A DNA stretch of 31,432 nt from positions 1-31,432 of the IMG/VR virus record IMGVR_UViG_3300048839_001666, one strand, 5' to 3'. Position numbers and translations under genes: made by a program. Positions 5,940 through 31,432 of the stretch are shown here, piece after piece; the first letter of the stretch is position 1; every line of letters begins with the position of its first letter. Below the pieces are notes generated by a model. The model was not told the origin of the DNA. It did no database searches and saw only the letters and a program-made list of their open reading frames with translations. Source of the DNA: a virus.

Positions 5940-6170
5940 GCCGTGGGTGGTTGGCGTGCCGGGAGGGCGGTGGGGTGGACGAAGTCGGGGCGTCCGCAGG
6001 GGGCCAGAGGGTGTGTTGTGTCTGCCGTGCTGGAGCGGCGGGCGTGAGCCCGGGCCGGGCGAACCGGCGCCCCGACGTCCGTGCGTCGGTGTGGGAATGA
6101 TGAGTGGCCCGGGCCCCGCTCGTTGTCACGGGGGCGCTGGCGCCCGGCGACGGCCGGCGCACTCGGGCAG

Positions 6171-6242
6171 TGCGGGATGCAGGAATCGAACCTGCGACCT
6201 CTTGGTCATGAGCCAAGCGAGCTGCCGCTGCTCTAATCCCGT
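6171..6242 (-). tRNA. tRNA-Met (anticodon CAT)
   Basis: A 72-nt cloverleaf can be folded by eye: acceptor ACGGGAT/ATCCCGC, D-stem GAGC/GCTC with a GG-containing loop, anticodon stem CTTGG/CCAAG with loop CTCATGA, a 5-nt variable loop, and T-stem GCAGG/CCTGC with loop TTCGATT. The discriminator is A and no CCA is encoded. The first acceptor pair is an A-C mismatch, reminiscent of bacterial initiators. However, the anticodon stem lacks the initiator GGG/CCC pairs, so elongator Met or a lysidine-modified Ile tRNA is more likely. A promoter lies 43 bp upstream. The 231 bp between it and the protease gene (5940-6170) shows no supported gene. Confidence 0.9.
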
Positions 6243-12322: not shown

Positions 12323-13797
12323 TTTACCCCCGTCAGAATCATGATTTCGGCGTCGCCCGGGGGCACGCCCTCGAGCACCGGGTTGCCGTCCGGCCCGGTG
12401 CCGTACCGCAGCTGGTGGTGCCACCGCAGGTCGCGGAAGCCGGCCGACTCCAGCAGGTGGTGGAACTGCTCCATGCCGAGCATGTGCCGGTCGAACGGCG
12501 TCCCCGGCGTGGCCCCGACCTGGGGCGTCGAGAACGCGCAGCGCCCGCCCGGCCGCAGGGCCTCGTACGCCGCGGCCACGCAGGCCGACTGGGCGGCCCA
12601 GGGCAGGTGTTCGAGCACCTCGAAGCAGGTGACCAGGTCGAACGACTCCGGCCGGGCCTCGTCGGGCAAGGCCCCCGAGGACAGGTCCGCCTGGAGGAAC
12701 GCCACCTCGTGCGGCTCGCCCGGCCCGGCGTGGTGCTCCCGGGCCCAGGCCACGCTCTCGGCGTCGGCGTCCAGCCCGACGAACCGCCGGCAGGGCACCA
12801 GGTCGGCCCCGTAGCCGGTGCCCGAGCCCAGGTCCAGGACGTTGTCGTGCGGGCCGCACAGGTCGGCCGCGAACAGGTAGCGCGAGCGGTGGTCGGCCAT
12901 CACCTCGCGCACGCCCGGCAGGGAGCGCTCGCGCGGGCCGGAGGCGTAGGCCCCGTACAGCCCGCCCAGCTGGCGGCAGCGCTCGCGGTCGCCGTAGCGC
13001 TCGACGCAGCGCAGGGCCGCCATCACCTTGTCCATGTCGCGCTGGCCCTCGTCGTGGTGCTGGTGGTACACCATCAACACCTTGTTCAGGCTCGGCGAGT
13101 CGGGCGAGCGGAGGAGGCTGGTCTCGACCCCCAGACACTGGCGGCGCTCCATGAAGTCCACGTCCACCGGGCCCCAGTTCTCGAACTCGCGGAAGCCGCC
13201 CATCCAGCGCCAGTTGGCCATCGACGTGGCCCACCAGACCTCGCTGTTCCATTCCCCGTCGCCGCGCCGCTCCTGCACGTTGTTGGAGTACGACGGGTTG
13301 CCCTCGTTGCGGTCGTAGAAGCCCGGCACCTCGCGCAGCACGTTCAGGTCGGCCTTCCAGTCGAACTCGTCGTAGACTTCCGGCGGGGCCGGGAGCCAGT
13401 AGGGGATGGCCGTGTGCCACTTCTCGGGCTCGGCCGTGGCCGCGTCGTACGCGACCCGCAGGGCGTCGGGGGGCGCCATGATTTCCGGGTGGGACGACAC
13501 CAGCACCTCGCCGAAGGCGAACAGGCTGGCCGCGTTCCTGAGTGCGCAGCCGTCGCGCCACTTGCCCGGCTCCTTCGGCTTGCCCAGGTCGCGGGCCGCG
13601 TCCAGCACGCGCAGGGGCAGCCCCCGGGCCTTGAACTCGCGGCACACCTCCAGGGTGTCGTCGGAGGAGCCGTCGTCCACGAGCAGGTACTCCCACTCGT
13701 CCGCCGGCAGGGTCTGCGTCAGGTACGTCTCCAGCGCCCGACGCAGGAGCGAGCCGCGGTTGAACGTAGATACTATGACTGATACTTTGATGGGCAC
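12319..13797 (-). CDS. GT2 glycosyltransferase fused to class I methyltransferase
   Basis: 492 residues from GTG 13797, with GGAG 8 nt upstream. Residues 1-265 are a GT-A/GT2 domain: VSVIVSTFNR, YLLVDDGSSDDT (38-48, metal/nucleotide binding) and NWGPVDVDFMER (208-218), which serves as the acceptor-side acidic motif. Residues about 300-492 are a class I SAM methyltransferase: NVLDLGSGTGYG (319-330), FVGLDAD (339-345), DLVTCFEVLEHLP (387-399) and a GG..FSTP loop. The fusion suggests that a sugar is transferred and then methylated. The first codons (GTA TCA GTC ATA GTA TCT) are AT-rich for this genome, which could keep the initiation region unstructured. Confidence 0.85.
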   Translation of the reverse strand: MPIKVSVIVSTFNRGSLLRRALETYLTQTLPADEWEYLLVDDGSSDDTLEVCREFKARGLPLRVLDAARDLGKPKEPGKWRDGCALRNAASLFAFGEVLVSSHPEIMAPPDALRVAYDAATAEPEKWHTAIPYWLPAPPEVYDEFDWKADLNVLREVPGFYDRNEGNPSYSNNVQERRGDGEWNSEVWWATSMANWRWMGGFREFENWGPVDVDFMERRQCLGVETSLLRSPDSPSLNKVLMVYHQHHDEGQRDMDKVMAALRCVERYGDRERCRQLGGLYGAYASGPRERSLPGVREVMADHRSRYLFAADLCGPHDNVLDLGSGTGYGADLVPCRRFVGLDADAESVAWAREHHAGPGEPHEVAFLQADLSSGALPDEARPESFDLVTCFEVLEHLPWAAQSACVAAAYEALRPGGRCAFSTPQVGATPGTPFDRHMLGMEQFHHLLESAGFRDLRWHHQLRYGTGPDGNPVLEGVPPGDAEIMILTGVK

Positions 13798-13801
13798 GGG
13801 T

Positions 13802-14248
13802 TCAACTCCGGCGGGTCCAGAGGGTCCGCAGCCCGCCCTCGGCGGCGGGGAGCGAGTCCCGGTGAATGACTTCCAGGCGGCCCCGGAACCACAGCGGCAC
13901 GCCGGCGGCGTCGCGCGCGGCGCGGAAGTGCAGCAGGTTGCCGCGGGGCGTCTCGAGGAACAGGTGCGGCGACCAGCGCACGCGCCGGCCGAAGCGCAGC
14001 CGCAGCGACCGGAAGCCGCCGCGCACGAACAGCAGCCACGCCGCCGCGGCGTAGCAGTTCGACCGCCGCTCCGGGGTGACGTAGCGGCGGCGCACGCGGC
14101 AGTCGCGCGGCGGCGGCGGGCCGTCCGGGAACCAGCCCAGCAGCCGGCCCGCCACCATCAGGGCGAACCAGGGCAGGAAGGCGGCGGCGGCGACCAGCAG
14201 CCACGCCAGGGCGGCCGGGCCGGGCGCGCGGGGCTGGCGGCGGGTCAC
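13802..14248 (-). CDS. Small basic membrane protein
   Basis: 148 residues from GTG 14248, which overlaps the upstream stop (GTGA). An N-terminal transmembrane segment (about residues 11-39, ALAWLLVAAAAFLPWFALMV) precedes a strongly basic, aromatic soluble part rich in Arg (RSLRLRFGRRVRWSPHLFLE). It is translationally coupled in the glycosylation operon. It may anchor the enzymes or act on the envelope. No family is recognised. Confidence 0.65.
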   Translation of the reverse strand: MTRRQPRAPGPAALAWLLVAAAAFLPWFALMVAGRLLGWFPDGPPPPRDCRVRRRYVTPERRSNCYAAAAWLLFVRGGFRSLRLRFGRRVRWSPHLFLETPRGNLLHFRAARDAAGVPLWFRGRLEVIHRDSLPAAEGGLRTLWTRRS

Positions 14249-14700
14249 GGCAACTCCCGGAAGAACTCGTAGGGCACCGGCGGCGGCATGGCGCCGGCGG
14301 CGTACATCTCGGGGCCGATGGCGGCCCGCAGCTTGGCCAGGTGGCGGGCCACCACGCGGGCGTGTTCGGGGGTGCCGACATCGCCCCACTCGAACGACCG
14401 CCAGGCGTTGTCGAGGGAGTCCCAGGCGGACTCGCACAGGGCCGCCCGGCGGCGCCACTCCGTCGGCCAGGAGCCGCCGTAGGCGCCCAGCAGGTCGGGC
14501 CGCAGCACGGCCGCCCCCTCGGCCCCGTAGGCGTCGGCCAGCCAGCGCCGGTGGGCCGAGGCCAGTTCCCAGTTCTCCCGGCACGCCTCGGCGTCGAACG
14601 GGAACCGGGCCAGGTCGGACGGGGCCACCGGGGCGCCCAGGTCCCACGGGGCCAGCACGGACAGCGCGGCGGACAGCGCGGCGGACAGCAGGCAACCCAT
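14245..14700 (-). CDS. Exported or membrane-anchored hypothetical protein
   Basis: 151 residues starting MGCLLSAALSAALSVLAPWD at ATG 14700, with GGAGGTGGAG upstream. The first about 18 residues are hydrophobic and look like a signal or anchor sequence. A Cys at position 3 is too close to the N-terminus for a standard lipobox. The rest is helical and rich in Ala, Trp and Arg, with no catalytic motif. Start and stop both overlap neighbours, so it is tightly coupled to the small membrane proteins on each side. Confidence 0.6.
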   Translation of the reverse strand: MGCLLSAALSAALSVLAPWDLGAPVAPSDLARFPFDAEACRENWELASAHRRWLADAYGAEGAAVLRPDLLGAYGGSWPTEWRRRAALCESAWDSLDNAWRSFEWGDVGTPEHARVVARHLAKLRAAIGPEMYAAGAMPPPVPYEFFRELP

Positions 14701-14852
14701 CACTCCACCTCCGGGTCGGCCTTGATGGCGGGACAGTCGCGGCAGTCGCAGGGCTTCTCGGCCCAGACCAGCAGCGACGCCCCGGCGTAGACGGCCAGCG
14801 CCAGCAGGGCCAGCCCGCCCAGGAACGCCGCCGTGTCCTTCCAGTCGTCCAC
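14700..14852 (-). CDS. 50-residue single-pass membrane protein with CDCRDC motif
   Basis: GTG 14852 begins VDDWKDTAAFLGGL, 3 bp after the upstream stop, and the TGA overlaps the next ATG. One hydrophobic helix (about 9-29) is followed by a short tail containing C-x-C-x-x-C. The overlapping stop/start pair and the membrane-then-cysteine layout argue that it is real despite its size. Small cysteine-tailed membrane proteins in phages include spanin- and holin-like factors, but nothing here proves that role. Confidence 0.55.
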   Translation of the reverse strand: MDDWKDTAAFLGGLALLALAVYAGASLLVWAEKPCDCRDCPAIKADPEVE

Positions 14853-14855
14853 CGC

Positions 14856-15152
14856 TCACCAGTCCCACTCTTCGGCCGTGACCTTCGCCCCCTTGGAGGC
14901 CAGCCACGGCAACAGTTCGCCCTTGAAGCAGCCCGGGCACAGGTCCACGGAAACCTCGTCGCCCCAGCCGCCGTCGGGGTAGTTGCGCCCGGACTTGTGC
15001 CGGACGACCACCCGCAGTTCGGTCTCGCCCACGTCGTGGCCGGCCGCCCAGTCGCCGCCCGGCCCGGCCAGCCGGCCGCACAGGTCGCAGGTGCGGGAGG
15101 CGAGGCGGGTGACCTTCCGGGCCTCCTCGACGGTCTCGTACGTGCGGGCCAT
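14856..15152 (-). CDS. Small zinc-ribbon protein
   Basis: 98 residues from ATG 15152, overlapping the stop of the glycosyltransferase (ATGA). Two C-x-x-C knuckles, CDLCGR (about 22-27) and CPGCFKG (about 72-78), are separated by a beta-rich loop and would hold one zinc. The C-terminus is acidic and Trp-rich. Such small proteins are common in phages and may bind nucleic acid or a protein partner. Confidence 0.7.
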   Translation of the reverse strand: MARTYETVEEARKVTRLASRTCDLCGRLAGPGGDWAAGHDVGETELRVVVRHKSGRNYPDGGWGDEVSVDLCPGCFKGELLPWLASKGAKVTAEEWDW

Positions 15153-16255
15153 CACTCCACCCCCGCCAGTTCCAGGAACGCCTTCACCCAGACGGCCGCC
15201 GCGTCGGCGTTCTGCCAGGCGTGGCCGAACAACTTCCCCCGCCCGTCGGGCAGGTCCGGGTCGGTCGCCGCCCGCTCGATGGCGTCGGCCCAGTCCCGCG
15301 CCTTCTCGTCGTCGGGCACGTCCCCGTACTCGGCGTAGGCGGCGTGCCTGACCACCAGGTCGGCGTCCGGGTAGGCCCACGGGGCGTTGGTCACCGTCCG
15401 CGCCCCGGCCGCGGCCGCCTCCATCCAGCGGATGGGACTCTTGCTGCGGTTGAACGGGCAGTCGTCCAGGGGCAGGAGGAACACGTGCGGCTTGACCACC
15501 TGGGACAGGTAGGCCGGGTAGTCCCGCAGGGGGACGCCCGGGTGGTAGCGGAAGCCGCGGCCGCCGAAGCGACCCAGGAGGTCGCCGTCGCACTCGCCGA
15601 AGTAGTGGAACTCGTAGCGCCGGCCCTCGCCGGCGTCGCAGCGCTCCAGCAGCAGCCGGACCCCGCCGCGGGCCGTCGCCAGGTCGCCCTCGTGGGTGGT
15701 GCCGCCGGCCCAGGCCACCCGCACGGCCGGGGCGTCGAAGGCGTCCCACGGGGCCGCCCGCGGCCAGTCGCGCAAATCCAGCAGGTTGGGCAGCACCCGC
15801 ACCGCCGTGCGGTCGGAGACGCCCAGTTGTTCGAGGCGGGCGGCCAGGGCGGGCGTGCTGGCCCAGGCGAAGTCGGCGTGGCGGCGGCACAGGGTCAGCC
15901 GGGCCATGAGCAGCGGGTCGTCGGCGTAGCGGGAGCGGGCGGGCGACCAGTCGGGCACCGACCACAGGTCGTCGTCCACGTTCCAGGCCAGCCGGAACGG
16001 GCGGGCCGTGCCACTCCGGGCGGCCGACTCGGCCAGCAGCAGGCCGGCCAGGTCGGGCTCGGCCTCGCGCAGGAGCACGGCCCCGTCGAAGCCGGCCAGG
16101 TCGCGCACGCGCAGGGACGCCGAGAGCACCAGCTCGACCCCGTGCCGGACCCGCAGCAGGTCCACGCAGTGGCGGTAGGGCAGCAGCGTCCGGTAGTGCC
16201 GGCAGGCCCCCTCGGCTAAAGGCAAATGCACGAAGATGCGGCGCGTGGTCGGCAT
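15152..16255 (-). CDS. GT-B (GT4-like) glycosyltransferase
   Basis: 367 residues from ATG 16255. An N-terminal Rossmann-like half starts RRIFVHLPLAEGACRHYR and includes WNVDDDLWSVP (91-101), and VRVLPNLLDL marks the interdomain region. The C-terminal half carries FLLPLDDCPFNRSKSPIRWMEAAAAGA (259-285). This is the Asn-x-x-K...E pattern of GT4-like enzymes that bind the donor diphosphate. It is the first gene of the glycosylation operon, 137 bp downstream of the degenerate modular gene. The AT-rich patch at 16283-16314 may contain a promoter, but no clear -35/-10 pair is visible. Confidence 0.8.
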   Translation of the reverse strand: MPTTRRIFVHLPLAEGACRHYRTLLPYRHCVDLLRVRHGVELVLSASLRVRDLAGFDGAVLLREAEPDLAGLLLAESAARSGTARPFRLAWNVDDDLWSVPDWSPARSRYADDPLLMARLTLCRRHADFAWASTPALAARLEQLGVSDRTAVRVLPNLLDLRDWPRAAPWDAFDAPAVRVAWAGGTTHEGDLATARGGVRLLLERCDAGEGRRYEFHYFGECDGDLLGRFGGRGFRYHPGVPLRDYPAYLSQVVKPHVFLLPLDDCPFNRSKSPIRWMEAAAAGARTVTNAPWAYPDADLVVRHAAYAEYGDVPDDEKARDWADAIERAATDPDLPDGRGKLFGHAWQNADAAAVWVKAFLELAGVE

Positions 16256-17832: not shown

Positions 17833-20800
17833 TCAATACAAGGACAGGCGGAACTTTTCCGCGCTCATTGTATCATTCGTCCGGGCGGGCGCCAGATTTG
17901 ATTTGCCCCCGCCCCCCAGCCAGGAGAACAGGCCGTACCGCACCGGGGAGCCGGGGCGGCGCATGCGGCGGGGCTGGTCGCCGCCGTCGGCTTCGGGGGC
18001 GGCGTCGTCGTGGCGGAACTCGTCGTCAGACGACTGGTGCGTCGCGCCTTCCGTTCGCAACTCGCGGGTCACTTTCCGCGCCTGTTCGAGCGGCATCCGG
18101 GCGCTCCAGACCATGCTGCCGCCCTGCGGCCTGGGAAGGTTGAGCGAGACGCGGGCGTGGGGAACCCCGAACATGCCCCGCTCGGGCTCGCGCCAGGCCA
18201 TGTAGTACGGCTCGCCGGGTTGTACGCTGGACTGAATGCCGCCGCCGTTCTCGTTCTCCCTCCTGTGCGCGTTAATGACGGCCATGTGCCCCATCATCCC
18301 GTGGTCGCCGAGGAACTCGGCCAGGACGCCGGCCCCGTCGGGGTGCAACACCAAGTCGCGGTAGACGTGGCCCTCCGGGTGGTGTGCGCCCCCGACGATG
18401 GCGCCGTAGTCTGGGTGCCGGATGACCTCCCCGATGGTCGCCCGCGCGTACCTCACCGGCCGCGCCCCCCGGCGGCGGTAGCGGAACGCCCCGCCGGCCT
18501 TCTGCCGGGCGCGCCACTTGTCCACGAGGTCCTTGAGCAGCCCCGGGTTGCCCAGGTACTTCTCCTTGATTTTCTTCGCGTCCTCGGGCGTGGCCCCGCG
18601 CAGCATGTCGGCCAGGAGTCGCTTCCGCGCGGCCTCGTCGTTGACCCGCGGCGGGGCGACCGGCTCCGGCGTCTCGTGGTGGGCGCGCCAGCCGGCCCCG
18701 GCGCTGGACCCGGCGTACGCCTTCATGGCGGCGGCGGCGGCGGGGTCGGCGAGCCCGCGGGCGCGGAAGTAGTCGGCCCCCTGCTCGGCCAAGGCCCGCT
18801 TGGTCGCCCGGTCGGCGATGCGGCGCAGGGCGTTCTCGACCGCAGCCCTGGTCGCCGGCGCCCACTCGCCGTCCCGCTTGCCGGCCAACTTCTTGTCGCC
18901 GTACTGCATCCCCGCCGCGGCCGCGTGCAGGGCGTCGCCGTGCCTGTCCAGGGTGTCGTTGTTGGTGGCGTCCTCGTGCTCGATGCCCTTGTCGTCGAGC
19001 ACGCGCTCGAGCGATTCCTCCAGGGCGAGGGCGTGGCCGACCCGGCCCCAGTTGACCGACCCGGCGTAGTCGGTCCCCTTGAGCAGGTCGCCCAGGCGGC
19101 GGAAGTGGCCCACCCGCTCGGCCGCCGTGCCGGACTCGGACAGGGCCGCCCGGGCCTCCTTGTGCTGGGGCGAGTTGCCATCGGTCTTGGCCATCACGTC
19201 GCGCAGCAGGTAGGCCAGACGGGTGTTGGCCAGCCGGGGGTCCACCCGGGGTGCCTCGCGCCGGGCCTTCGCCCCCGACGGGGCGGGGCTGTCCACGAAC
19301 GCCCCCAGGTCGAGCTGGCGCCGCTGCACGCCCGGCGAGCGGGCGCCGGCGGACGGGGCCGGGCCGGACGGGGACTCGGACAGGGCGGCCAGGGCGGCGT
19401 CGTGGCCCGCGCCCGCGGCGAGGGCGGCGGCGGCCGCGCGCAGGTTGACGCGCAGGTGGCCCTTGTGCGTGCCCTTGTCGCGGTAGAGGGCGTTGACCTT
19501 GGGGGCGGCGCCGGATTCGCGGAGGGCGTCCAGGGCGTCGTGCAGGCGGGCGAAGCCGGCGTGGTCGCCGGAGAGGGCCAGCTTGAGGGCGGTGCGGGCC
19601 GGGTGCTCGGCCGGGGACGGGCCGACGACGGCGCTGTGCACGCCCGGGACGGCGTCGTGCGGCAGGGTCGCCTCGATGGCGTCGAGTTCGAGCCGGAGCG
19701 GGTGGCGGGCCGGCAGCGGGGTCGGGCCGCCGCCGGGCTCGGGGACGGCCGACGCGACCGGGCGGGCGGGCGGCGGGGGCGGGGAGCCGGCGGCGCTTCT
19801 TCTTCGGGGGGGCTTCGGAATCGGGCGGGCCACCGGGTGCGACCCCTTCCGGTAAGGACCCACGCCCGGCCGGCCGGCGTAGCGGGCGGGGGTGCCGCGC
19901 CGGCGGAACCGCTCGGGCCGGTCGCCGTCGTCGTGGCCGTCGAGGATGCCGACCAGCCGGGTGCCGGCGTTAACCCCGGGGGCGGACTCGGCCAGGTCGG
20001 CGGCGAACGCCTCCGCCTCGGGGTGGGTGAACTCGAAGTGGTAGGCCATCGGGCTGCGCCCCTTGCCGTCGTGGAAGGCCGCGTGGACGACGTGCCGCTG
20101 GTTGGAGCCGGGGTCGCCCTCTTGCGAATAGGCCAACTCGAACGGGCCGTGCGTGCCGAGCGGGCGGTAGCCGACGGCCGGGTCGAAGTCGGTCGCGCCC
20201 GGGGTGGCGAACTCGTGCCACAGGTTGTCGTTGCCCTGGTCGGTCTGCATGCGATGGCGGACGTGCGCGGCGATGGGGGTGGCCTCGGGCCACGTCTCCT
20301 GGACGTGGTCGGCGAAGGCCATGTGCTTGACCGGGTCGTACACGTCGCGGGCCAGGGCGCGCACCAGCGGGGCGTGGTTCTCCATCGCGTACCGCACCCG
20401 GCGCCCGCGCCGCGCCAGCCGGGCCGCCCTGCCCTTGCCGGCCCGGCCCTCGGTGCCGGCGAGGGCGACGCCCTTCGGCCCGCCCGCGCGGGTGCCGGTG
20501 ACCGCTCCGGTGCCGCCCTTGCTCATCATGGTGCGGATCTGGTTCAGGACGTCCTTGCGGCCGGCGGCGTTCTCGGCGCCGCTCATGGCGAGCAGGTCGC
20601 GGTGTGATTTGGCCAACTCGTCGCCGAGCTTGCCGGCCCCGGGCCACGGGGCGTCGCCGGCGTGGTCGCGGTGGACCAGCCAGTGGCCGGACGGCCCCTC
20701 GACGACCTGGTGGCCGTTCTTGTGGGCCCATTCGAGGATGGCGGCCCGGTGGGCGGGGTCGGCCACGTCGCGGTGGTTCAGGTGGGCGGCCCGGAGTTTG

Positions 20801-23448
20801 CCGGCCTTGAAGTCGCGCAGGTGGTCGGCCAGGGCGGCCGAGACCGCGACCCCGCCGCGGGCCAGCCGGTCGGCCCGGTCGGCGGCCTCCACCCAGGCGG
20901 GGGCCGGCCGGCCCGAGTCGGGCGACTTGCCGCGGAGCCGGCGGGCGACCCAGTTGGCGACCGGGGCGGCGGCGCGGGCCATGCCCCGGCCGATGGTGCG
21001 CGGGTCCATGTAGTGGTCGACCGCCTCCCCGGCGGCCTCCAGCCGGCGGCGGACGGTGGACAGCGCGCCCGGGCCGCGAGAGGAACTCGGGGGCGAGTCG
21101 GGGGTGTCGTCCACCATGTGGGCGAACGGCTCCAGGTCCGGCAGGTCGTCGTCGCCGCCGTCGTAGCGCAGGGGCGAGCCCCGGCGGCGCATGCGGCGGG
21201 GCTGTTCGGGCGGCGGGATTTGGCGGTGGGTGAACGTGTCGCCGTGGACGGCGCCTTCGGCGAGCAGGCCGTGCCCCAACTCCTCCGCCTCGTGGAACGG
21301 CATCGGCGACGACTCCCACTCCATCCGGTCGTTCGGCTGGTGGTGCGCCTGCATGTCCATGACAATCTTGAACCCCGTGTTGGCGCCGCGGTCGAAGTGG
21401 GCCCGCAGTCGAAACCGGGTCGGCATGGGCGGAACCTGTTGGCCGGGCCGAGCGTTGTACGCATCCAGTTGCCGCCGGAAGCCGTTCCCGTCCCGCGCGT
21501 GCTCGCGAATGACCCGGGCGTGATGTTCCCCGATGTCCTCGTGGACCTTGTCGGCGTACACGAGTTGGCCCTCCGGCGTCGGGTCGGCGAACAGCGACCG
21601 GTGGAAGGCGGCGTGGTCGTGCCCGCCCTGATTCTCGTGGAAGGCATACCGCACCGGCCGCCCCCGGCGGGCGAACGGCACCGGGCGGGGCTCGGCGGCG
21701 TGGCCGGCCTCGTGCAGGGCGACCCGGGCGGCGACGTGGGGGCTCGCCCCCTCATCGACCAGCCCGCGCGCCAGGGCGACGGCGTCGGCGTGGGGCAGGA
21801 CGGTCTTCCAGCGGAAGCCGCGGTCGGGGTTCGCGTGGTGGCGCATGAACAGGCTCACCTGGGTGCGGCCGCCGTCGAGGCCCTTGAGCAGGTCCACGGA
21901 CGTGCGGGTCGGGGTGTCGCGGGGCGTGCCCTGGAGGTGGTAGGCCGACGACGGGCTGAACGCCGGCACGGCCCCGGTCGGGTCGGCCGCGGACGCCCGC
22001 GCCTGCGCCCGGATGACGGCCGCGTGGTGCTCGCCGACGTCCTCGTGGACCTTGTCGGCGTAGGCCAGCGTGCGGGTCGGGTCGGACGTGGCGCCGGGCT
22101 GGGACAGCCCCTCGTGGAAGGCGGAGTGGTCCACCGCCGGCCTGGCCCAGGCGGCGGGGTTGTTCAGCTCCAGGCCGGCGTAGCGCAGGGGCGGGCGGGC
22201 GCGGCGGCGCATGCGGGCGGGGGGCTGGCCGCCCTCGGCTTTGGGCGGGTCGTGGCGGAACTGTTCCGGGACTCGCGGGTGGGGGACGGCCCCCTCGGCA
22301 CGCAGCCCCCGGGTCAGGGCGAGCGCGTGCTCGTGCGGCACCTCGGCGACGAACTCGAAGTGGTTGCCGTGCGCCACGTCGGGTAACTTCAGTTGCACCT
22401 GGGTCTTGCCGCCGTCGCCGGCTTCGGGGTGGACGTGGTAGGCGGCCGCGTCCGGGTCAACGTCCCGGTAGCCGGGGCCGCGGAAGTACCAGCCGCCTTC
22501 GAGGTACGAATCCTTGCCGGCCGCGTGCCGCCCGCGGGACCGCTCCATCATGCCCTGGATGAGGTCCGCGTGGGCTTCCAACCCCTGGTCGCGGAGCCAG
22601 TCGGCGTACTTGCCGGCGTGCCCCCAGTCCACCCGGTAGTCGCCCGCCCCCTGGGGCGGCCTCATCGCCGCGTGCCACTCCGCGTGGTCCGGGTGGGCCA
22701 GTGACTCCTGCACCGTCCGCGCGTATCGCACCGGCCGCCCGCCCCGGCTCATCTTCGCCGGCACGCACGACCCCTCGCGGCACTTGGCGCTGGCCAGGTG
22801 GGCGGCCTTGCCGCGGGGGTGGCCCTTGGACAGGTAGAAGTTGAACCAGGTGGTGAACAGCGCCCGCTTGCCGTTGGCCGGGCGCGGCTTCTTCTTCGGG
22901 GCGGGGGCGTCGGGCTCGGAGCGGGCCATGCGGCGGGGCTCCCGGGGTTCGGCGGGCGTGGCGGCTTCGTCCGCCCGACGCAACTCATCGTTGACGGCCT
23001 CGCCCTGAACGTGAGCGCCCTCGGCCCGCAACCGCTTGACCATGTCGAGGCCCTCGGCGGCGGGCACTTCGACGTGCCAACTGAGCTTGTGGGACGGGGC
23101 GTGGTGCGCCCGCATGTTGAGCATCACGAACCGCTTGCCCTGGCTGTCCGGGCCGGTCGCGAAAACGCCCGTTCCGTGTTGCGGCATCCACCCCAACCCG
23201 TCTCGCGGGCCGTGCACCACCGCCCCCTCCTCGCCGCTGACGTGCGCGGCGGGCCAGCCCTCGCCGTGCCGGCGGATGAGGTCGGCGTGGGCCTCCCCGA
23301 CGTCCTCGTGGACCTTGTCGGCGTAGGCCATCCGGGCCACTGAGTCGGACGGGTTCGCCAGCAGGTGGCGGTGGAAGCCCGAGTGGTCGCCCCCGCCCTG
23401 CGACTCCGCGAGGGCGTATCGGACCGGGCGGCGGCTGGCATTGACCAT
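17833..23448 (-). CDS. 1871-residue giant modular protein with nine P-V-R-Y-A-type motifs
   Basis: ATG 23448 starts MVNASRRPVRYAL, so the protein opens with the motif itself. Further copies lie near residues 241, 419, 598, 759, 1017, 1187, 1664 and 1835. Consensus: R-x-x-G-x-P-[VL]-R-Y-[A/G/D], usually after Met-Arg-Arg-Arg. Several inter-motif segments are about 160-180 residues and contain D-H-x-x-F-H..L, a YADKVHEDVGE.HAdlIR or YADWLRDQG..AHADLI signature (TIGR02996-like), and a beta part closing with RGLRAEGA. The long segment 1187-1664 is different: Ala-rich helices, a NWGRVGHALALEE unit shared with the 971-residue protein, and a helical EDAKKIKEKYLGNPGLLKDLV region. Residues about 185-235 form a basic patch with AKCREGSC. 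No secretion signal or enzyme motif is seen. It takes the place of a MuF-type minor head gene, so injected internal virion cargo is plausible but unproven. Confidence 0.8.
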   Translation of the reverse strand: MVNASRRPVRYALAESQGGGDHSGFHRHLLANPSDSVARMAYADKVHEDVGEAHADLIRRHGEGWPAAHVSGEEGAVVHGPRDGLGWMPQHGTGVFATGPDSQGKRFVMLNMRAHHAPSHKLSWHVEVPAAEGLDMVKRLRAEGAHVQGEAVNDELRRADEAATPAEPREPRRMARSEPDAPAPKKKPRPANGKRALFTTWFNFYLSKGHPRGKAAHLASAKCREGSCVPAKMSRGGRPVRYARTVQESLAHPDHAEWHAAMRPPQGAGDYRVDWGHAGKYADWLRDQGLEAHADLIQGMMERSRGRHAAGKDSYLEGGWYFRGPGYRDVDPDAAAYHVHPEAGDGGKTQVQLKLPDVAHGNHFEFVAEVPHEHALALTRGLRAEGAVPHPRVPEQFRHDPPKAEGGQPPARMRRRARPPLRYAGLELNNPAAWARPAVDHSAFHEGLSQPGATSDPTRTLAYADKVHEDVGEHHAAVIRAQARASAADPTGAVPAFSPSSAYHLQGTPRDTPTRTSVDLLKGLDGGRTQVSLFMRHHANPDRGFRWKTVLPHADAVALARGLVDEGASPHVAARVALHEAGHAAEPRPVPFARRGRPVRYAFHENQGGHDHAAFHRSLFADPTPEGQLVYADKVHEDIGEHHARVIREHARDGNGFRRQLDAYNARPGQQVPPMPTRFRLRAHFDRGANTGFKIVMDMQAHHQPNDRMEWESSPMPFHEAEELGHGLLAEGAVHGDTFTHRQIPPPEQPRRMRRRGSPLRYDGGDDDLPDLEPFAHMVDDTPDSPPSSSRGPGALSTVRRRLEAAGEAVDHYMDPRTIGRGMARAAAPVANWVARRLRGKSPDSGRPAPAWVEAADRADRLARGGVAVSAALADHLRDFKAGKLRAAHLNHRDVADPAHRAAILEWAHKNGHQVVEGPSGHWLVHRDHAGDAPWPGAGKLGDELAKSHRDLLAMSGAENAAGRKDVLNQIRTMMSKGGTGAVTGTRAGGPKGVALAGTEGRAGKGRAARLARRGRRVRYAMENHAPLVRALARDVYDPVKHMAFADHVQETWPEATPIAAHVRHRMQTDQGNDNLWHEFATPGATDFDPAVGYRPLGTHGPFELAYSQEGDPGSNQRHVVHAAFHDGKGRSPMAYHFEFTHPEAEAFAADLAESAPGVNAGTRLVGILDGHDDGDRPERFRRRGTPARYAGRPGVGPYRKGSHPVARPIPKPPRRRSAAGSPPPPPARPVASAVPEPGGGPTPLPARHPLRLELDAIEATLPHDAVPGVHSAVVGPSPAEHPARTALKLALSGDHAGFARLHDALDALRESGAAPKVNALYRDKGTHKGHLRVNLRAAAAALAAGAGHDAALAALSESPSGPAPSAGARSPGVQRRQLDLGAFVDSPAPSGAKARREAPRVDPRLANTRLAYLLRDVMAKTDGNSPQHKEARAALSESGTAAERVGHFRRLGDLLKGTDYAGSVNWGRVGHALALEESLERVLDDKGIEHEDATNNDTLDRHGDALHAAAAGMQYGDKKLAGKRDGEWAPATRAAVENALRRIADRATKRALAEQGADYFRARGLADPAAAAAMKAYAGSSAGAGWRAHHETPEPVAPPRVNDEAARKRLLADMLRGATPEDAKKIKEKYLGNPGLLKDLVDKWRARQKAGGAFRYRRRGARPVRYARATIGEVIRHPDYGAIVGGAHHPEGHVYRDLVLHPDGAGVLAEFLGDHGMMGHMAVINAHRRENENGGGIQSSVQPGEPYYMAWREPERGMFGVPHARVSLNLPRPQGGSMVWSARMPLEQARKVTRELRTEGATHQSSDDEFRHDDAAPEADGGDQPRRMRRPGSPVRYGLFSWLGGGGKSNLAPARTNDTMSAEKFRLSLY

Positions 23449-23543: not shown

Positions 23544-23855
23544 ATGGTCGGGCTGGAGGAACTGGACCGGATGGTCGAGGCGGCGGCGCGGTCGCACCCG
23601 GAGTTCGAGCACGAACTGGACGAGTGCGGCAGCGAGTTCCGGGCGCTGGGGGTCACGGCCCTCTACCTGGGGCGGGCGGCCGGGTGCGGCATGCCCTGGG
23701 TGCGCGAGCACCTGAAGAACGAGGGGCTGGCCGACCTGCTCGCCCTGGACCGCCGGGAGTTGGGGGCGGCGTTCGCGGGCTACGTCCGGCGCGGGCCGGC
23801 CCGGCGGGCGCTGGCGGAAGCGGCGGCGGCTGGGGAGGGCGCGCGATGCGACTGA
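23544..23855 (+). CDS. Small plus-strand protein (moron candidate, gene 1)
   Basis: The promoter places transcription start after the upstream-most ATG (23469), so ATG 23544 is preferred. It sits behind a G-rich ribosome site and gives 103 residues beginning MVGLEELDRMVEAAARSHPE. GTG 23514/23517 are alternatives. It is mostly helical and acidic then Ala/Arg-rich, with a Gly/Tyr/Arg stretch in the middle (GVTALYLGRAAGCGMPWVREHL). It overlaps the next gene by 10 bp. Orientation opposite to all late genes, together with its own promoter, suggests a cargo gene expressed independently. Family unknown. Confidence 0.65.
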   Translation: MVGLEELDRMVEAAARSHPEFEHELDECGSEFRALGVTALYLGRAAGCGMPWVREHLKNEGLADLLALDRRELGAAFAGYVRRGPARRALAEAAAAGEGARCD

Positions 23856-24112
23856 CGAAGACCGACCGCGGGTTCGAGGCGGTCGAGCACCCGGCCTACC
23901 CGCCGGGCGCCGGCCGGGGCGAGACGCGGCTGCTGCAGCAATCCTCGGCCATCGGGGACGGGGACGACGGGCTGGCGCGGCCGGGGTCGGCGTTCCTGTG
24001 GGTGGGGCGCGACCACCACCTGACGCGCGCGGAGGTGGCCGAGGCGGTCGCCTACATGCGGCGCTGGCTGGAGACGGGGTCGCTGGGCGAACCGGTCAGC
24101 GCCGGCGGCTGA
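23846..24112 (+). CDS. Small plus-strand protein (moron candidate, gene 2)
   Basis: 88 residues from ATG 23846, with GGGAGGG 7 nt upstream. The core, ARPGSAFLWVGRDHHLTRAE, is followed by a helix (VAEAVAYMRRWLETG). It resembles small phage proteins with a PGSa[FY]LWVG..HHL..EE pattern that I have seen but cannot name. It is translationally coupled to the preceding gene. Its 3' end overlaps the convergent portal gene by 17 bp, so antisense contact between the two transcripts is possible. Confidence 0.65.
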   Translation: MRLTKTDRGFEAVEHPAYPPGAGRGETRLLQQSSAIGDGDDGLARPGSAFLWVGRDHHLTRAEVAEAVAYMRRWLETGSLGEPVSAGG

Positions 24113-26847: not shown

Positions 26848-27104
26848 TCCGGCATCTCCTCGCAGGCGCGGACGGCGGCGTCCCACTCGTTGTCGCGCTC
26901 GTAGTCGCGCTCGCCGGGGTCGGGCGGGTCGTCGGTCGGCAGGCTCACCCAGCGGACCGGGTCGGGCGAGCAGAAGTCGCACCGCCGGCCGACCAGGAAC
27001 TCGCCGCACTTGCGGCAGCGCGGCCAGTCGCGCGGCGGGTCCGGGGGCGGGTTATCCGAGAAAGCGCGGGGCCGGCTTCGGCCGCTGGGGCTTGAGGAAT
27101 CCAT
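26844..27104 (-). CDS. Small zinc-ribbon protein next to the large terminase
   Basis: 86 residues from ATG 27104, overlapping the end of the large terminase by 53 bp. The ribosome site is poor, so the start is uncertain. A four-cysteine zinc ribbon (CRKCGEFLVGRRCDFC, about 30-45) is followed by an acidic Asp/Glu-rich tail. It overlaps the methyltransferase start (GTGA). It could assist terminase or methyltransferase, but no specific family is recognised. Confidence 0.65.
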   Translation of the reverse strand: MDSSSPSGRSRPRAFSDNPPPDPPRDWPRCRKCGEFLVGRRCDFCSPDPVRWVSLPTDDPPDPGERDYERDNEWDAAVRACEEMPE

Positions 27105-28707
27105 GAGGCGCGTGCGATTTGATGTCGCCGGGGGACTGCATGCCCATGAACCCGGCGGTCGGTTTGGGGGGGAGTGACTGTTCCCAGTGCGGGGTGGGGC
27201 CGGCCTTCTCGATGGGCAGCGGCGGGGTCCACGCCGGCTGGGCGTGCTCGACGCACATGAGGGCGGCCATGCCCACGGCGACCGCCCGGTCGTCGTGGAA
27301 GCCGCTCTCGTGGTCGAAGCGGTAGCCGTAAGACATCTGTTTGAAGACGAGGGCGGCGACCTCGTCCACGAACGTCTCGGGGTGGCCGTTGACCAGCAGC
27401 GTGCCGGCCCCGGGGTACCAGGCCAGCTTGCCGTTGACGACCAGGTCGCGGAAGCACTCGCACAGCCGGTAGGTGTTCTTGCCGCCGCGGGCCTCGAACG
27501 TCTCGACGATTCGCCGCCGCCGCTCGTCCTGGGCCAGTTCCAACAGTTGGTAGGGGTCGAGCACCAGGTCCGGCCGGCCGAACCCCTCGTCCACCTCCTC
27601 GAGCCACTCCCGGATGCGGGCGATGCGTATCTCCGGCTGGCCCTGGTTGTCCGGGTCGTAGGGGCGCCACTGCCACACGTCCAGCCGGTCGAGCACGACC
27701 AGCCCGCCCTCTTCGGGGTGGCAGACGGCCAGGGCGGTGCGGTCTCTCTTGGGGCCGTAGTCGATGCTGGCCCAGTAGCGCTTGCCCCGCTCGCCCCTGG
27801 TGCGGTAGGTCAGGCCGAGTGCGGCGCCCCGGGACTCGCACAACTGGGCGTCCGCCCTGGTCAGGTAGCCGGACTCCTCGCCGGGGTCAATCCAGACGTT
27901 GTCGAACAGCCGCCGGCCCTCGCTGGGCAGCATCTTCTCGCGCAACTTGTCGATGCGCTCGGGCGTCATCCAGGACGCCAACTGCACCCGCTCGGGCGAC
28001 TCGTAGACGTCCCAGTCGGGGTCGTCCCTGGCCTTCAGGAACGTGTGGTGCTGCCAGGAGAACTTGACCCCGGCGTTGCTGATGACGATGAGCACCGAGT
28101 TGGGCCGCTTCTCCATGCCAGACAGGATGGCCGTCCACAGCTCGTACCCGGCCTTGCGCTCCCAGACCGTGAGTTCGTCGGCCACGACCACGTCCGGCTT
28201 GAGCCCTTGGTTGCTGCCGGCGTCGGCGGCGAGCACCTGGAGGAACCCGCCGGGGCCGCGCACGACCGACTGGCCCTTGCCGGTGCGGGCGGCCAGCCAC
28301 GGGTTGAGGCGGCGCTCGGCCGCCATCGCCTGGGTGATGAGCCCGGCCTGGTCGGCGTCGGCCGCCACGCAGTACAGGTTGAGCGGCCGGCGGGCGTAGG
28401 CCAGCAGCCAGTTGAGCCGCCGGGCGATGCTGCTCGTCTTGTCGTGCCCCTTGGGCAGCCCGCGCCAGAACGCCCGCGGCCCGCCGTAGTCGCTGCGCAC
28501 GCCGGCCACCTGCTCGAGGGCGGCGTCGATGGGGCCGTACACCGACCACTGCCAGGGCTCGGCCACGTCGCCGAACGCGCAGGGCGGGACCGACTCGATG
28601 ACCACCCGGCTCAGGTAGTCCGTCAGCGACCCGGCCGACTCGGCGTCCGCCATCGCGTGGTGGACGGCGATGGCCCGGGCCAGCGCCGCCGGGTCATTCG
28701 GGACCAT
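27052..28707 (-). CDS. terL: Terminase large subunit
   Basis: 551 residues from ATG 28707, overlapping the small subunit by 14 bp. The packaging ATPase half has a Walker A-like RGLPKGHDKTSS (82-93) with an unusual His-Asp in the P-loop, and Walker B PDVVVADE (171-178). The motif III region is LIVISNAG (206-213). The C-terminal RNase H-like nuclease has SIDYGPKRDRTAL (314-326), DLVLDPYQ (380-387) and HDDRAVAVGMA (471-481), providing the acidic metal ligands. It cuts concatemeric DNA and drives it into the prohead through the portal. The long Pro-rich C-terminal tail (about 500-551) is less conserved. Confidence 0.93.
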   Translation of the reverse strand: MVPNDPAALARAIAVHHAMADAESAGSLTDYLSRVVIESVPPCAFGDVAEPWQWSVYGPIDAALEQVAGVRSDYGGPRAFWRGLPKGHDKTSSIARRLNWLLAYARRPLNLYCVAADADQAGLITQAMAAERRLNPWLAARTGKGQSVVRGPGGFLQVLAADAGSNQGLKPDVVVADELTVWERKAGYELWTAILSGMEKRPNSVLIVISNAGVKFSWQHHTFLKARDDPDWDVYESPERVQLASWMTPERIDKLREKMLPSEGRRLFDNVWIDPGEESGYLTRADAQLCESRGAALGLTYRTRGERGKRYWASIDYGPKRDRTALAVCHPEEGGLVVLDRLDVWQWRPYDPDNQGQPEIRIARIREWLEEVDEGFGRPDLVLDPYQLLELAQDERRRRIVETFEARGGKNTYRLCECFRDLVVNGKLAWYPGAGTLLVNGHPETFVDEVAALVFKQMSYGYRFDHESGFHDDRAVAVGMAALMCVEHAQPAWTPPLPIEKAGPTPHWEQSLPPKPTAGFMGMQSPGDIKSHAPHGFLKPQRPKPAPRFLG

Positions 28708-29110
28708 CGCCGCCCCCCACGGGGATGCCGCAGCGGCGGGCCTCCTCGCGCAGTTGGGCCAGCGGCATCCCGGCGAGGTGGTTGACGTCGAACTTGTCCA
28801 CGAACATGCCCAGGTGGCGGCCGACCAGTTCCGCCGCCCGCACCTGCGTCGCCGGGGGCGAGTTCTGGTTGACCGCCGCGGCGATGAGCCGCTCCAGCAC
28901 CCACGCCTGGTCCACCCGGAGCGATTCGGCCCGCTCGCGCATGGCCTCGGCGACGGCGGCCTGGACTTTAGGGTTTGTTAGCAGTCGCGACCCCTCCACG
29001 TGGGCGGAGTTTTCGGCGTATTGGGCGCGGCGGGCGGCCTCGGTCGCGTTCAGGCAGACGAGGTAGTGCCGGACGAAGTCCTGCTGCTTGACGGTGAGTT
29101 CCGTGCTCAT
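28694..29110 (-). CDS. terS: Terminase small subunit
   Basis: 138 residues, starting MSTELTVKQQDFVRHYLV at ATG 29110. An upstream in-frame ATG (29155) would add a Pro/Arg-rich stretch not typical of the family. It matches the Terminase_2 (P27/pNR-type HTH) pattern very well: LT.KQ..FV..YL..LNATEAARRAqYaenSAHVEGSRLLTNPKVQAAVAEAM. It recognises the packaging site and recruits the large subunit. The C-terminus is charged and the gene ends inside the large-subunit gene. Confidence 0.9.
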   Translation of the reverse strand: MSTELTVKQQDFVRHYLVCLNATEAARRAQYAENSAHVEGSRLLTNPKVQAAVAEAMRERAESLRVDQAWVLERLIAAAVNQNSPPATQVRAAELVGRHLGMFVDKFDVNHLAGMPLAQLREEARRCGIPVGGGDGPE

Positions 29111-29326: not shown

Positions 29327-29357
29327 CGCCCCGCCGGTCGGGAGGGCCGGCGGGGCG
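29327..29357. terminator. Hairpin in the terminase leader
   Basis: Perfect 11-bp arms (CGCCCCGCCGG / CCGGCGGGGCG) with a 9-nt loop lie between the extended -10 promoter and the terminase start. No T-run follows. It could end the upstream array transcript, attenuate the terminase operon or protect its 5' end. The rest of 29196-29393 shows only a weak AACCAT/ATGGTT inverted repeat and no gene. Confidence 0.5.
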
Positions 29358-29392: not shown

Positions 29393-29401
29393 ATTATAGC
29401 A
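29393..29401 (-). promoter_or_regulatory. Extended -10 promoter for the terminase operon
   Basis: The minus strand reads TGCTATAAT, a perfect -10 hexamer with an upstream TG. It overlaps the TAA stop of the last array gene. Transcription would begin near 29386, giving a leader of about 190 nt (with the hairpin) before the 23-codon ORF. Confidence 0.6.
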
Positions 29402-29606
29402 CACGCCGGGCCGTCCGCGCCCGGGAAACGTCCGGCAGGCTGTAGCCGAGCCTGAGCGCCGGCGACACAACCGTCACGCTCCGCACGGTCGGCCGTTCGA
29501 CGCCCCACGGGTAGAGCGCCCACGACGAACTGCACCAGGCACCGAGGAATCGTCGCTTGCGCTGCCGGGACACGGGGCCGCGGATTAGGTGTCTGGGGCA
29601 CCACAT
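29394..29606 (-). CDS. MWCP-family mini-protein 9 (last of array)
   Basis: 70 residues starting MWCPRHLIRGPVSRQ at ATG 29606, two bases after the stop of the preceding member, with GGAGG 8 nt upstream. It is very basic, with a Trp-rich centre (GAWCSSSWALYPWGVERP). Only the first residues and the W/S patch resemble the others. Function unknown. Confidence 0.65.
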   Translation of the reverse strand: MWCPRHLIRGPVSRQRKRRFLGAWCSSSWALYPWGVERPTVRSVTVVSPALRLGYSLPDVSRARTARRVL

Positions 29607-29608
29607 CG

Positions 29609-29812
29609 TCACACCCTCCCTTGCTGGACCGAAGCGTACACCCGGAGCACGTGGGGCCCGACGTCGACGAGTCGCCCGCGGCCGTCCTTGGAGTGGGCGC
29701 GGTCGGTGACGCCGGAGACGTGCCGCAGGCGGTTCGGCCGGGCGGCTTCCCGCATGACACAGGGCCGCCGGTAGTTGGAGGCGTGCCGGGCACGCCACAT
29801 GGGGCACCACAT
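29609..29812 (-). CDS. MWCP-family mini-protein 8
   Basis: 67 residues. There are two adjacent ATGs (29815 and 29812). The second is preferred because AGGAGG is 5 nt from it and only 2 nt from the first. It starts MWCPMWRARHASNYRRP, is basic, and has no membrane segment or Cys pair beyond the N-terminal motif. Its start overlaps the previous stop (ATGATG). Confidence 0.7.
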   Translation of the reverse strand: MWCPMWRARHASNYRRPCVMREAARPNRLRHVSGVTDRAHSKDGRGRLVDVGPHVLRVYASVQQGRV

Positions 29813-30012
29813 CATTGCCTCCTTGCTCGGTCTTCGTGCTGAACGGGCCGCGAGCGGGCGCGGGCGCCCTGCCAGGACACGGGTGTCACCAGGTCGAGCC
29901 CAGCCGATCGGTGGGCGGATTGGGCGCGGCACAGCCGGTCGGCGGGACTCTGCCGTGACCTCAGCAGGTAGCGCGGGCCGGGCAGGACGACCCTCCAGGC
30001 GGGACACCACAT
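29812..30012 (-). CDS. MWCP-family mini-protein 7
   Basis: 66 residues starting MWCPAWRVVLPGPRYLL. The ATG at 30012 shares its first base with the previous stop (TGATG). The first eight residues are identical to member 6, after which the two diverge completely. The C-terminus is Arg/Gln-rich with a VSWQGARAR patch corresponding to the W-S-Q region of other members. Confidence 0.7.
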   Translation of the reverse strand: MWCPAWRVVLPGPRYLLRSRQSPADRLCRAQSAHRSAGLDLVTPVSWQGARARSRPVQHEDRARRQ

Positions 30013-30233
30013 CAGCGCAACCCCCGTCGCATGCCGTCGAAGTGGGAGCCATCGGCGATGAGGCGGTGCGCCCACTGCCTGGAGCAGAACTCGCCCTCGC
30101 GGTCACGGCCGGACTGGCTGGACACGTCGCGCTCGTGGGTCTCGGTGCGAATGCCGGACTCGGTGTGGCCGCGGCGGCGGGCGGCCATGCGGGCGAGCAT
30201 GGGTTGGGGAACTCTCCAGGCGGGGCACCACAT
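30012..30233 (-). CDS. MWCP-family mini-protein 6
   Basis: 73 residues starting MWCPAWRVPQPMLARMAARR at ATG 30233, with AGGAG 7 nt upstream. It is separated from the previous stop by 17 bp. It is strongly charged (Arg, Glu, Asp, His), probably soluble and helical, and contains VSSQSGRDREGEF. Codon third positions are overwhelmingly G/C, as in the neighbouring phage genes, which supports real coding. Confidence 0.75.
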   Translation of the reverse strand: MWCPAWRVPQPMLARMAARRRGHTESGIRTETHERDVSSQSGRDREGEFCSRQWAHRLIADGSHFDGMRRGLR

Positions 30234-30250
30234 CGGGTTCTCCTCTCGGT

Positions 30251-30472
30251 TCAGGTCGACCGCGACCGGTCGCGGCGGTCGAATCGGTCGGCGGTGGGGC
30301 CGGCGTAGGACGCCGCGTCGCAGGACAGCGGCCCCCGCGCCTGGGACCACCACCAGCCGGAGGGGGCGACGTGGTTCCGGGTCTGAGCCCGGGAGTCCTC
30401 GGCGCGGCCGACGTTGGGCCCGCCCGACTGGGTGGATGCCCGGCCGCGGACGTGGTAGAGGGGGCACCACAT
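30251..30472 (-). CDS. MWCP-family mini-protein 5
   Basis: 73 residues starting MWCPLYHVRGRASTQSG. The ATG at 30472 overlaps the previous stop as TGATG. It contains the clearest second motif, SGWWWSQARGPLSCDAASY (about 38-56), shared in part with members 1-3. Its end is Asp/Arg-rich. Confidence 0.72.
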   Translation of the reverse strand: MWCPLYHVRGRASTQSGGPNVGRAEDSRAQTRNHVAPSGWWWSQARGPLSCDAASYAGPTADRFDRRDRSRST

Positions 30473-30723
30473 CAGTCTGTCCTCCCCGTGCCCGTGCTGC
30501 GCGAGTCGCGGCGGGCGTAGTTGGTCGTGCGCATGCCGGAAGCGGAGCGGTGCCCGAAGGGGCCGGTGGACGCCGAGGACAGGTTGTGCAGCCAGCCCCC
30601 GGCGATGCGGGCGAGCGAGCCTTCCATGCGGACGGCGACGGTGCCCGCGTACGGGCGGGCGTGGAGGTCCAGCGTGCCGTGGGCCGAGCCGCGGCGTGCT
30701 CGGTAGTGCATGTGCGGCCACAT
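30472..30723 (-). CDS. MWCP-family mini-protein 4
   Basis: 83 residues, the longest, starting MWPHMHYRARRGSAHG, so Cys-Pro is replaced by Pro-His. AGGAG precedes the TGATG overlap. The central part (AGGWLHNLSSASTGPFGHRS) aligns loosely with the W-S-Q patch of the others. Confidence 0.7.
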   Translation of the reverse strand: MWPHMHYRARRGSAHGTLDLHARPYAGTVAVRMEGSLARIAGGWLHNLSSASTGPFGHRSASGMRTTNYARRDSRSTGTGRTD

Positions 30724-30965
30724 CAAAGCGCTCCTTGTCCGTCGGACAGTGACATCGAGGTCGGGAAGCCGCGGCGGCCGCGGGCGACTGAGTGGACGTC
30801 GCGGCGGGCGGCGGACCCGGCCTGGGACCACCAGTGTCGGAACGGGCACGGCATCCCCGGGGTCAGCGAGCGCGCGGACGAGTCCTGCTCGGCGAAGCCG
30901 CCCGCGCCGCGCTGCGAGGACATCCGGTGCGGCCGCAGCCGCACGACGTAGGTCGGGCACCACAT
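30723..30965 (-). CDS. MWCP-family mini-protein 3
   Basis: 80 residues from ATG 30965 (an ATG at 30968 immediately precedes it), with GGAGGA upstream. It starts MWCPTYVVRLRPHRMSSQRG. The second motif is CPFRHWWSQAGSAARRD. The start overlaps the previous stop (TGATG). Confidence 0.7.
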   Translation of the reverse strand: MWCPTYVVRLRPHRMSSQRGAGGFAEQDSSARSLTPGMPCPFRHWWSQAGSAARRDVHSVARGRRGFPTSMSLSDGQGAL

Positions 30966-31189
30966 CATTCGTCCTCCGGTTCGGGGGTGGAGTCGGAACG
31001 GGAATAGCGCAGCCCAGAGGGCCCGCGCATGTACGGCAGGGCGGGCAGGCGGTCGGTCCTCGACCAGGACCACGAGACCCGCCGCGTCCTTGCGTTCGAC
31101 CGGGTGGCCCAGAGCGAGGCCCACACAGTCGCGGCGGCCGGCCGGGCGTGGCTGCACGGTACGCGAACGTAGGTCTGGTCTGCCCACAT
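30965..31189 (-). CDS. MWCP-family mini-protein 2
   Basis: 74 residues starting MWADQTYVRVPCSHARP at ATG 31189. An AGGA is 6 nt upstream, and ATG 31195 gives a two-residue longer form. The Cys-Pro is replaced by Ala-Asp. The second motif is VSWSWSRTDRLP. The tail is acidic, unlike the other members. Confidence 0.68.
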   Translation of the reverse strand: MWADQTYVRVPCSHARPAAATVWASLWATRSNARTRRVSWSWSRTDRLPALPYMRGPSGLRYSRSDSTPEPEDE

Positions 31190-31191
31190 GG

Positions 31192-31401
31192 TCATTCCTG
31201 CCCGAATCGGAACGTGGATTCGTGCCAGGCATCCCCGCGCGGGTCTTCCTGCACGGACAGCGGGCGCCCTTGTTGCGACGACCACCCGACGCAGCCGTTG
31301 GTGTGGTTCGGCTGCGTGCTCTCCTCGCGGAGGGTGTGGGGGCGCCGCTCCGTCCGGCTCACGCTCTTGGCCACCCTGACGTAAACACGGTCAGGCCACA
31401 T
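31192..31401 (-). CDS. MWCP-family mini-protein 1
   Basis: 69 residues starting MWPDRVYVRVAKSVSRT at ATG 31401, with GAGGA 7 nt upstream (GTG 31407 is an alternative). Members 1 and 2 share MW-x-D-x-x-YVRV and form a subgroup. The second motif is CVGWSSQQGRPLSVQED. Confidence 0.68.
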   Translation of the reverse strand: MWPDRVYVRVAKSVSRTERRPHTLREESTQPNHTNGCVGWSSQQGRPLSVQEDPRGDAWHESTFRFGQE

Positions 31402-31403
31402 GG

Positions 31404-31432
31404 TCACATCCTCAAATGCTGGGAACGGGAGA
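31404..31432 (-). CDS. C-terminal end of a further array member (runs off the window)
   Basis: The frame ending at TGA 31406-31404 gives ...SRSQHLRM. It stops two bases before the next ATG, the same TGACCATG junction seen between members 1 and 2. Only eight codons are visible, so this is inferred from junction geometry. Confidence 0.35.

What the first reader, a model, noticed from the sequence alone, without database searches (positions are those of the whole stretch)
29394..31432. Tandem array of at least nine divergent MW(C)P mini-genes
Nine consecutive frames of 66-83 residues share only the start M-W-[C/P/A]-[P/H/D]-x-[WYH]...R and a loose W-[WS]-S-Q patch. The rest is unrelated between neighbours. 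Junctions are TGATG, ATGATG or TGACCATG in most cases, and most members have their own ribosome site. Constant N-terminus plus hypervariable body, all in one coupled operon next to the terminase genes, looks like a diversified set of small effectors or decoys (anti-defence, DNA-binding or virion peptides). I know of no described family like this.
Basis: partly seen in the sequence, partly recalled or inferred. Interest (0 to 1): 0.88.

Follow-up and report, generated by a model that had tools for sequence, protein, structure and literature searches.

The report
Tandem array of divergent small phage genes
A phage fragment, probably from a Gemmata-like planctomycete, carries at least nine small protein genes in a row that share a start (Met-Trp...) but have otherwise drifted almost beyond recognition; the array is real and no relative was found, but what the proteins do is unknown.

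Summary
Nine minus-strand genes of 66-83 codons lie head to tail at 29394-31401, all starting Met-Trp, mostly with a ribosome site in the tail of the preceding gene. A tenth may be cut by the contig end. They are genuinely coding: no stop in 655 codons, strong GC3, all eight start-to-start spacings congruent to 2 mod 3, synonymous variation at the conserved N-terminal codons, and residual body similarity only in the proposed frame. They descend from one ancestor; the best-matching pairs are mostly not neighbours (M2-M4, M1-M8, M3-M5, M6-M9). The W-[WS]-S-Q patch is weak.

No match in Pfam, NCBIfam, PADLOC or PDB, and only a marginal one in PHROGs. No comparable array in phage or plasmid records, in IMG/VR (DNA patterns only) or in sampled Planctomycetota genomes. 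The nearest prophages with related portal, capsid or terminase genes lack it where their flanks could be read. AlphaFold2 finds no confident fold.

Best reading: an orphan accessory module of tandemly duplicated, fast-diverging, mostly basic small proteins, made in parallel from one coupled message. The anti-host or effector role is inference. New variant of a known kind; moderate interest, limited by a single contig without close relatives.

The parts
31192..31401 (-). M1, 69 aa, MWPDRVYVRVAK..., near neutral (charge about +0.8)
   Evidence: ORF, SD-like TGAGGA upstream
30965..31189 (-). M2, 74 aa, MWADQTYVRVP...; body similar to M4
30723..30965 (-). M3, 80 aa, MWCPTYVVRLR...HWWSQAG...; body similar to M5
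30472..30723 (-). M4, 83 aa, MWPHMHYRARR...
30251..30472 (-). M5, 73 aa, MWCPLYHVRGR...WWWSQAR...
30012..30233 (-). M6, 73 aa, MWCPAWRVPQP...; starts 17 nt after the M5 stop
29812..30012 (-). M7, 66 aa, MWCPAWRVVLP...
29609..29812 (-). M8, 67 aa, MWCPMWRARHA...
29394..29606 (-). M9, 70 aa, MWCPRHLIRGP...; last member, stop TAA
31404..31430 (-). possible C-terminal remnant of a tenth member (SRSQHLRM*) cut by the contig end; stops 2 nt before M1 with the same TGACCATG junction as M1/M2
   Evidence: translation; only eight codons visible, inference
29327..29357 (-). strong GC hairpin between M9 and terS, possibly separating the array from the terminase unit
   Evidence: RNA fold, stem of 12 pairs; region as a whole z -0.94 and no T-run terminator called
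28694..29110 (-). terS, terminase small subunit (context)
   Evidence: Pfam PF03592 E 9e-26 and PHROG 51; start at 29110
27052..28707 (-). terL, terminase large subunit (context)
   Evidence: Pfam PF03354 and PHROG 9

Best explanation
Shown: a family of at least nine paralogous protein genes that grew by tandem duplication and diverged very far, keeping the reading frame, the coupled stop/start junctions and an N-terminal signature M-W-[CPA]-[PDH]-x-[YWH]-x-V-R. Inferred: all members are made together from one polycistronic message by termination-reinitiation and their own ribosome sites. They are small, mostly basic, largely unstructured binding proteins whose common N-terminus contacts one shared partner and whose bodies contact differing targets, so the array works as a parallel set of accessory (host-takeover or anti-defence type) proteins. 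Confidence that they are real coupled paralogous genes is about 0.95; the number given is for the whole functional reading.
For: Nine open frames with coding base composition; frame-preserving length changes and frame-specific body similarity; synonymous change at conserved N-terminal codons, for example Val8 GTC/GTT/GTG and Arg9 AGG/CGC/CGG; full-length similarity M2-M4 and M3-M5; amino-acid choice departs from the base-composition null as much as in terL or portal; pI 10-12 in eight of nine; no confident fold, pLDDT 55-61; absent from relatives, as accessory genes are.
Against: No functional evidence at all: no family hit, no homologue in another genome, no expression data. M1 is nearly neutral, so simple nucleic-acid binding does not fit every member. 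Poor AlphaFold2 models may only reflect the tiny alignment. Low constraint on the bodies could also mean relaxed selection rather than diversification; divergence is saturated, so dN/dS could not be measured.
Confidence: 0.35

Rival explanations
1. Virion or internal-head peptides: small basic Arg/Ser-rich proteins made with the packaging genes and packaged or bound to DNA, like T4 internal proteins in role.
For: Directly upstream of terS on the same strand; eight of nine basic, Arg 16%, Ser 11%.
Against: Charge density is far below protamine-like packers (M1 about +1, M5 about +5 in about 70 aa). Prophages with related portal and capsid genes lack the array. A GC hairpin may separate it from terS.
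Confidence: 0.2
2. A selfish or weakly selected expansion: tandem duplication with relaxed constraint, most members contributing little.
For: Bodies are nearly unrelated, composition is not far from GC-rich random codons in several residues, no fold is predicted, and the module is absent elsewhere.
Against: No stop and no frameshift in nine members at this divergence; N-terminal residues kept through synonymous change; ribosome sites kept.
Confidence: 0.25
3. A DNA- or RNA-level repeat (packaging site, operator or start-associated sequence) in which the frames are incidental.
For: A 13-17 nt repeat, TGATGTGGTGCCCC, recurs every 200-251 nt beside terS.
Against: The repeat sits exactly on start codons; upstream sequence is not conserved beyond the ribosome site; three members keep Met-Trp but lose the rest of the DNA repeat; body similarity is in one frame only.
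Confidence: 0.05
4. Precursor peptides of modified natural products: constant leader, variable core.
For: Constant N-terminus plus variable remainder in tandem copies.
Against: The constant part is only about 9 residues, bodies are 55-75 residues, and no modification enzyme was recognised next to the array (the neighbours searched are terS, terL and a DNA methylase).
Confidence: 0.04

Closest known systems
SPO1 host takeover module (PMC6873191)
   Same: A cluster of small phage genes with good ribosome sites, many of unknown target
   Different: SPO1: 26 genes, early, tested for growth inhibition. Here: one paralogous family with a shared N-terminus next to the terminase genes, no expression or toxicity data. 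That the SPO1 genes are not one paralogous family is from general knowledge
Start-associated sequences of cluster K mycobacteriophages (PMC3203893)
   Same: A short repeated sequence at the start sites of many small phage genes
   Different: SAS is a DNA motif (GGGATAGGAGCCC) upstream of unrelated gene families; here the constant part is inside the coding sequence and conserved at the protein level
T4-type internal head proteins (from general knowledge)
   Same: Small, basic, variable accessory proteins of phages
   Different: No packaging signal or maturation site was recognised, no sequence match, tandem array of nine

Membership tests
SPO1-like host takeover module | cluster of small tightly packed genes with strong ribosome sites | tested here: met
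SPO1-like host takeover module | early expression and growth inhibition of the host | not testable with these tools
   needs transcriptomics and expression tests
Start-associated sequences (SAS) | conserved DNA motif immediately upstream of start codons of unrelated genes | tested here: not met
   upstream columns vary apart from the ribosome site; conservation is within codons 1-9 and includes synonymous change
T4-type internal head proteins | presence in virions and cleavage by the head protease | not testable with these tools
   no virion data
Any described protein family (Pfam, PHROGs, NCBIfam, PADLOC, PDB) | profile or sequence match | tested here: not met
   only one marginal PHROG hit, E 0.08 for M6
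RiPP precursor peptides | leader recognised by a neighbouring modification enzyme | tested here: inconclusive
   neighbours searched are terS, terL and a DNA methylase; the genome fragment is incomplete

The most novel reading that the evidence does not exclude
A phage gene family that diversifies by tandem duplication under a constant docking peptide, giving one virus nine or more parallel variable-body proteins against different host or defence targets, a combinatorial effector array not described before.
Probability: 0.2. Interest if true: 0.85.

Novelty: new variant of a known kind. Interest (0 to 1): 0.5.

Why it matters
Small phage proteins of unknown role are a main source of anti-host and anti-defence factors. 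Large tandem arrays of one such family, with a constant start and nearly saturated bodies, would show how a phage can generate variety by duplication without a dedicated diversification system. Phages of Planctomycetes are little known, so it also adds to that record.

Tried and rejected
TerL, TerL segment, capsid, portal and linker-motif queries found no relative in IMG/VR, and TerL none in genome contigs. DNA patterns for coupled Met-Trp genes gave only chance matches in IMG/VR and Planctomycetota. In Gemmatales the triple pattern hit CRISPR arrays of genome G010 and one place in G076 (L242) whose locus was not examined further. Profile hits in five Gemmatales genomes (E 0.003-0.04) are read as chance: no tandem array, and two span stops. 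Antisense coding rejected: about 15 stops in the mirrored plus frame. Frameshift origin of body variety not supported: no similarity in other frames. Growth by two-gene duplication (best lag is 2) is only suggestive: 424/20000 orders, 610/5000 after correction for lags. CRISPR spacers of G010 do not match the window. A first motif script timed out; its replacement ran.

Full report
What the window is. The window is the whole of one IMG/VR virus record of 31,432 bases, linear, probably a fragment. Almost all genes run on the minus strand. Reading in that direction: the array (31401-29394), terS (29110-28694), terL (28707-27052), a DNA methylase, a Mu-type portal (25700-24096), very large TIGR02996-type proteins, glycosyltransferase/methyltransferase genes, then a possible head protease and capsid genes at the far end. 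TIGR02996 domains and the best TerL, portal and capsid relatives being in Gemmatales point to a Gemmata-like planctomycete host; this is inference.

The array is real. Nine ORFs start ATG-TGG and run 66-83 codons. Five junctions are TGATG overlaps, two have 2 nt and one 17 nt between stop and start; all eight start spacings (212, 224, 242, 251, 239, 221, 200, 206) are congruent to 2 mod 3. Under a non-coding null the last seven agreeing with the first has probability about 1/2187, although the overlap geometry and the frame are not independent facts. The frames hold no stop in 655 codons; the positional base composition predicts 9.7 in the 511 body codons. GC3 is 0.82-0.96 against 0.54-0.76 at positions 1 and 2, as in the phage's other genes. 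The GC3-mirrored plus-strand frame carries about 15 stops, counted. A chain scan over the window and 0.7 Mb of other loci found one 9-chain, in the window, and two 3-chains elsewhere. Codon-usage scoring favours the minus frame, though in some members one plus frame scores almost as well, as expected from mirrored GC3. A simple gene caller trained on the window called some members, merged others into longer in-frame ORFs and left some out, so their composition is unusual.

They are one family. The N-terminus is M-W invariant, then C-P (6 of 9) or P/A with D/H, an aromatic residue or His at 5-7 in most, Val8 (6 of 9) and Arg9 (6 of 9). Val8 and Arg9 are written with three different codons each, so conservation is at the protein level; upstream of the start only the ribosome site is conserved. 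Bodies (residue 13 on) are similar above shuffles in 7 of 36 pairs at p<0.05, best M2-M4 (z about 5), M1-M8, M3-M5 and M6-M9. Among 72 ordered comparisons, 16 exceed z=2 in the coding frame and 3 and 1 in the other frames. The W-[WS]-S-Q patch is clear in M1, M3 and M5 and only marginal as a nine-member motif. The four best pairs are not neighbours; similarity peaks at next-but-one members, which would fit duplication of two-gene blocks, but not significantly after correction.

A tenth member is likely. The 31 nt between M1 and the contig end hold an open frame ending SRSQHLRM* whose TGA lies 2 nt before M1, the same junction as M1/M2. This is weak evidence because only eight codons are visible.

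Properties. Mean composition is Arg 16%, Ser 11%, Trp 4%, Lys 0.5%; eight of nine have pI above 10 and charge +3.6 to +11.6, while M1 is near neutral. AlphaFold2 gave pLDDT 61 for M3 with the nine-row alignment and 55 for M5 alone, with no strands and at most a three-residue helix. With so few sequences this cannot prove disorder.

Relatives. No match in Pfam or NCBIfam at E<=1, one PHROG at E 0.08, none in PADLOC or PDB. No match for M3 in phage records or for the array DNA in plasmid records. IMG/VR pattern scans for coupled Met-Trp genes gave only chance matches. A pattern scan of 392 Planctomycetota genomes and a profile scan of 102 Gemmatales genomes gave no array. Prophages with related TerL (G065, G095, G053, 33-37% identity) or related portal and capsid (two in G076, 35-38%) lack an array upstream of the terminase where sequence is available; G065 and G053 have only short flanks. 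One triple-pattern place in G076 (L242) was left unexamined. IMG/VR may withhold close relatives of the record, as the tool states, and could be searched only by exact short patterns, so absence is not proven.

Interpretation. The safe statement is a tandem, coupled, extremely divergent paralogous family of small phage proteins with a conserved N-terminus. The most likely role is an accessory set of small host-interacting proteins, with the N-terminus meeting a shared partner and the bodies meeting different targets; this rests on anatomy and analogy with phage small-gene modules such as that of SPO1, not on any direct evidence. Virion peptides and relaxed-selection expansion remain live rivals; a DNA-level repeat such as start-associated sequences is disfavoured. 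Divergence is saturated, so selection on the bodies could not be measured.

Noticed in passing
17833-23448, 6705-9620, 9684-10499 (minus strand): A near-constant linker of the type RRxGRPVRYA recurs twelve times, often before TIGR02996-like modules, in three ORFs. It looks like the joints of a polyprotein or a repeated sorting or cleavage motif.
   Followed up: partly
6170-6242 (minus strand): A tRNA-Met (anticodon CAT) gene lies among the structural genes.
   Followed up: no
23544-23855 and 23846-24112 (plus strand): Two ORFs on the strand opposite to all other called genes, between the 1871-aa ORF and the portal.
   Followed up: no
11225-16255 (minus strand): A glycosyltransferase-like plus methyltransferase-like ORF (12319-13797, weak matches below cut-off) and other possible sugar-modifying genes among the structural genes.
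   Followed up: no
L251, L252 and the portal loci of genome G010: One 12.4 Mb Gemmatales genome has eight portal matches (two of them pieces that may be one gene) and two large CRISPR arrays; 116 spacers were extracted and none matches this phage beyond chance.
   Followed up: partly
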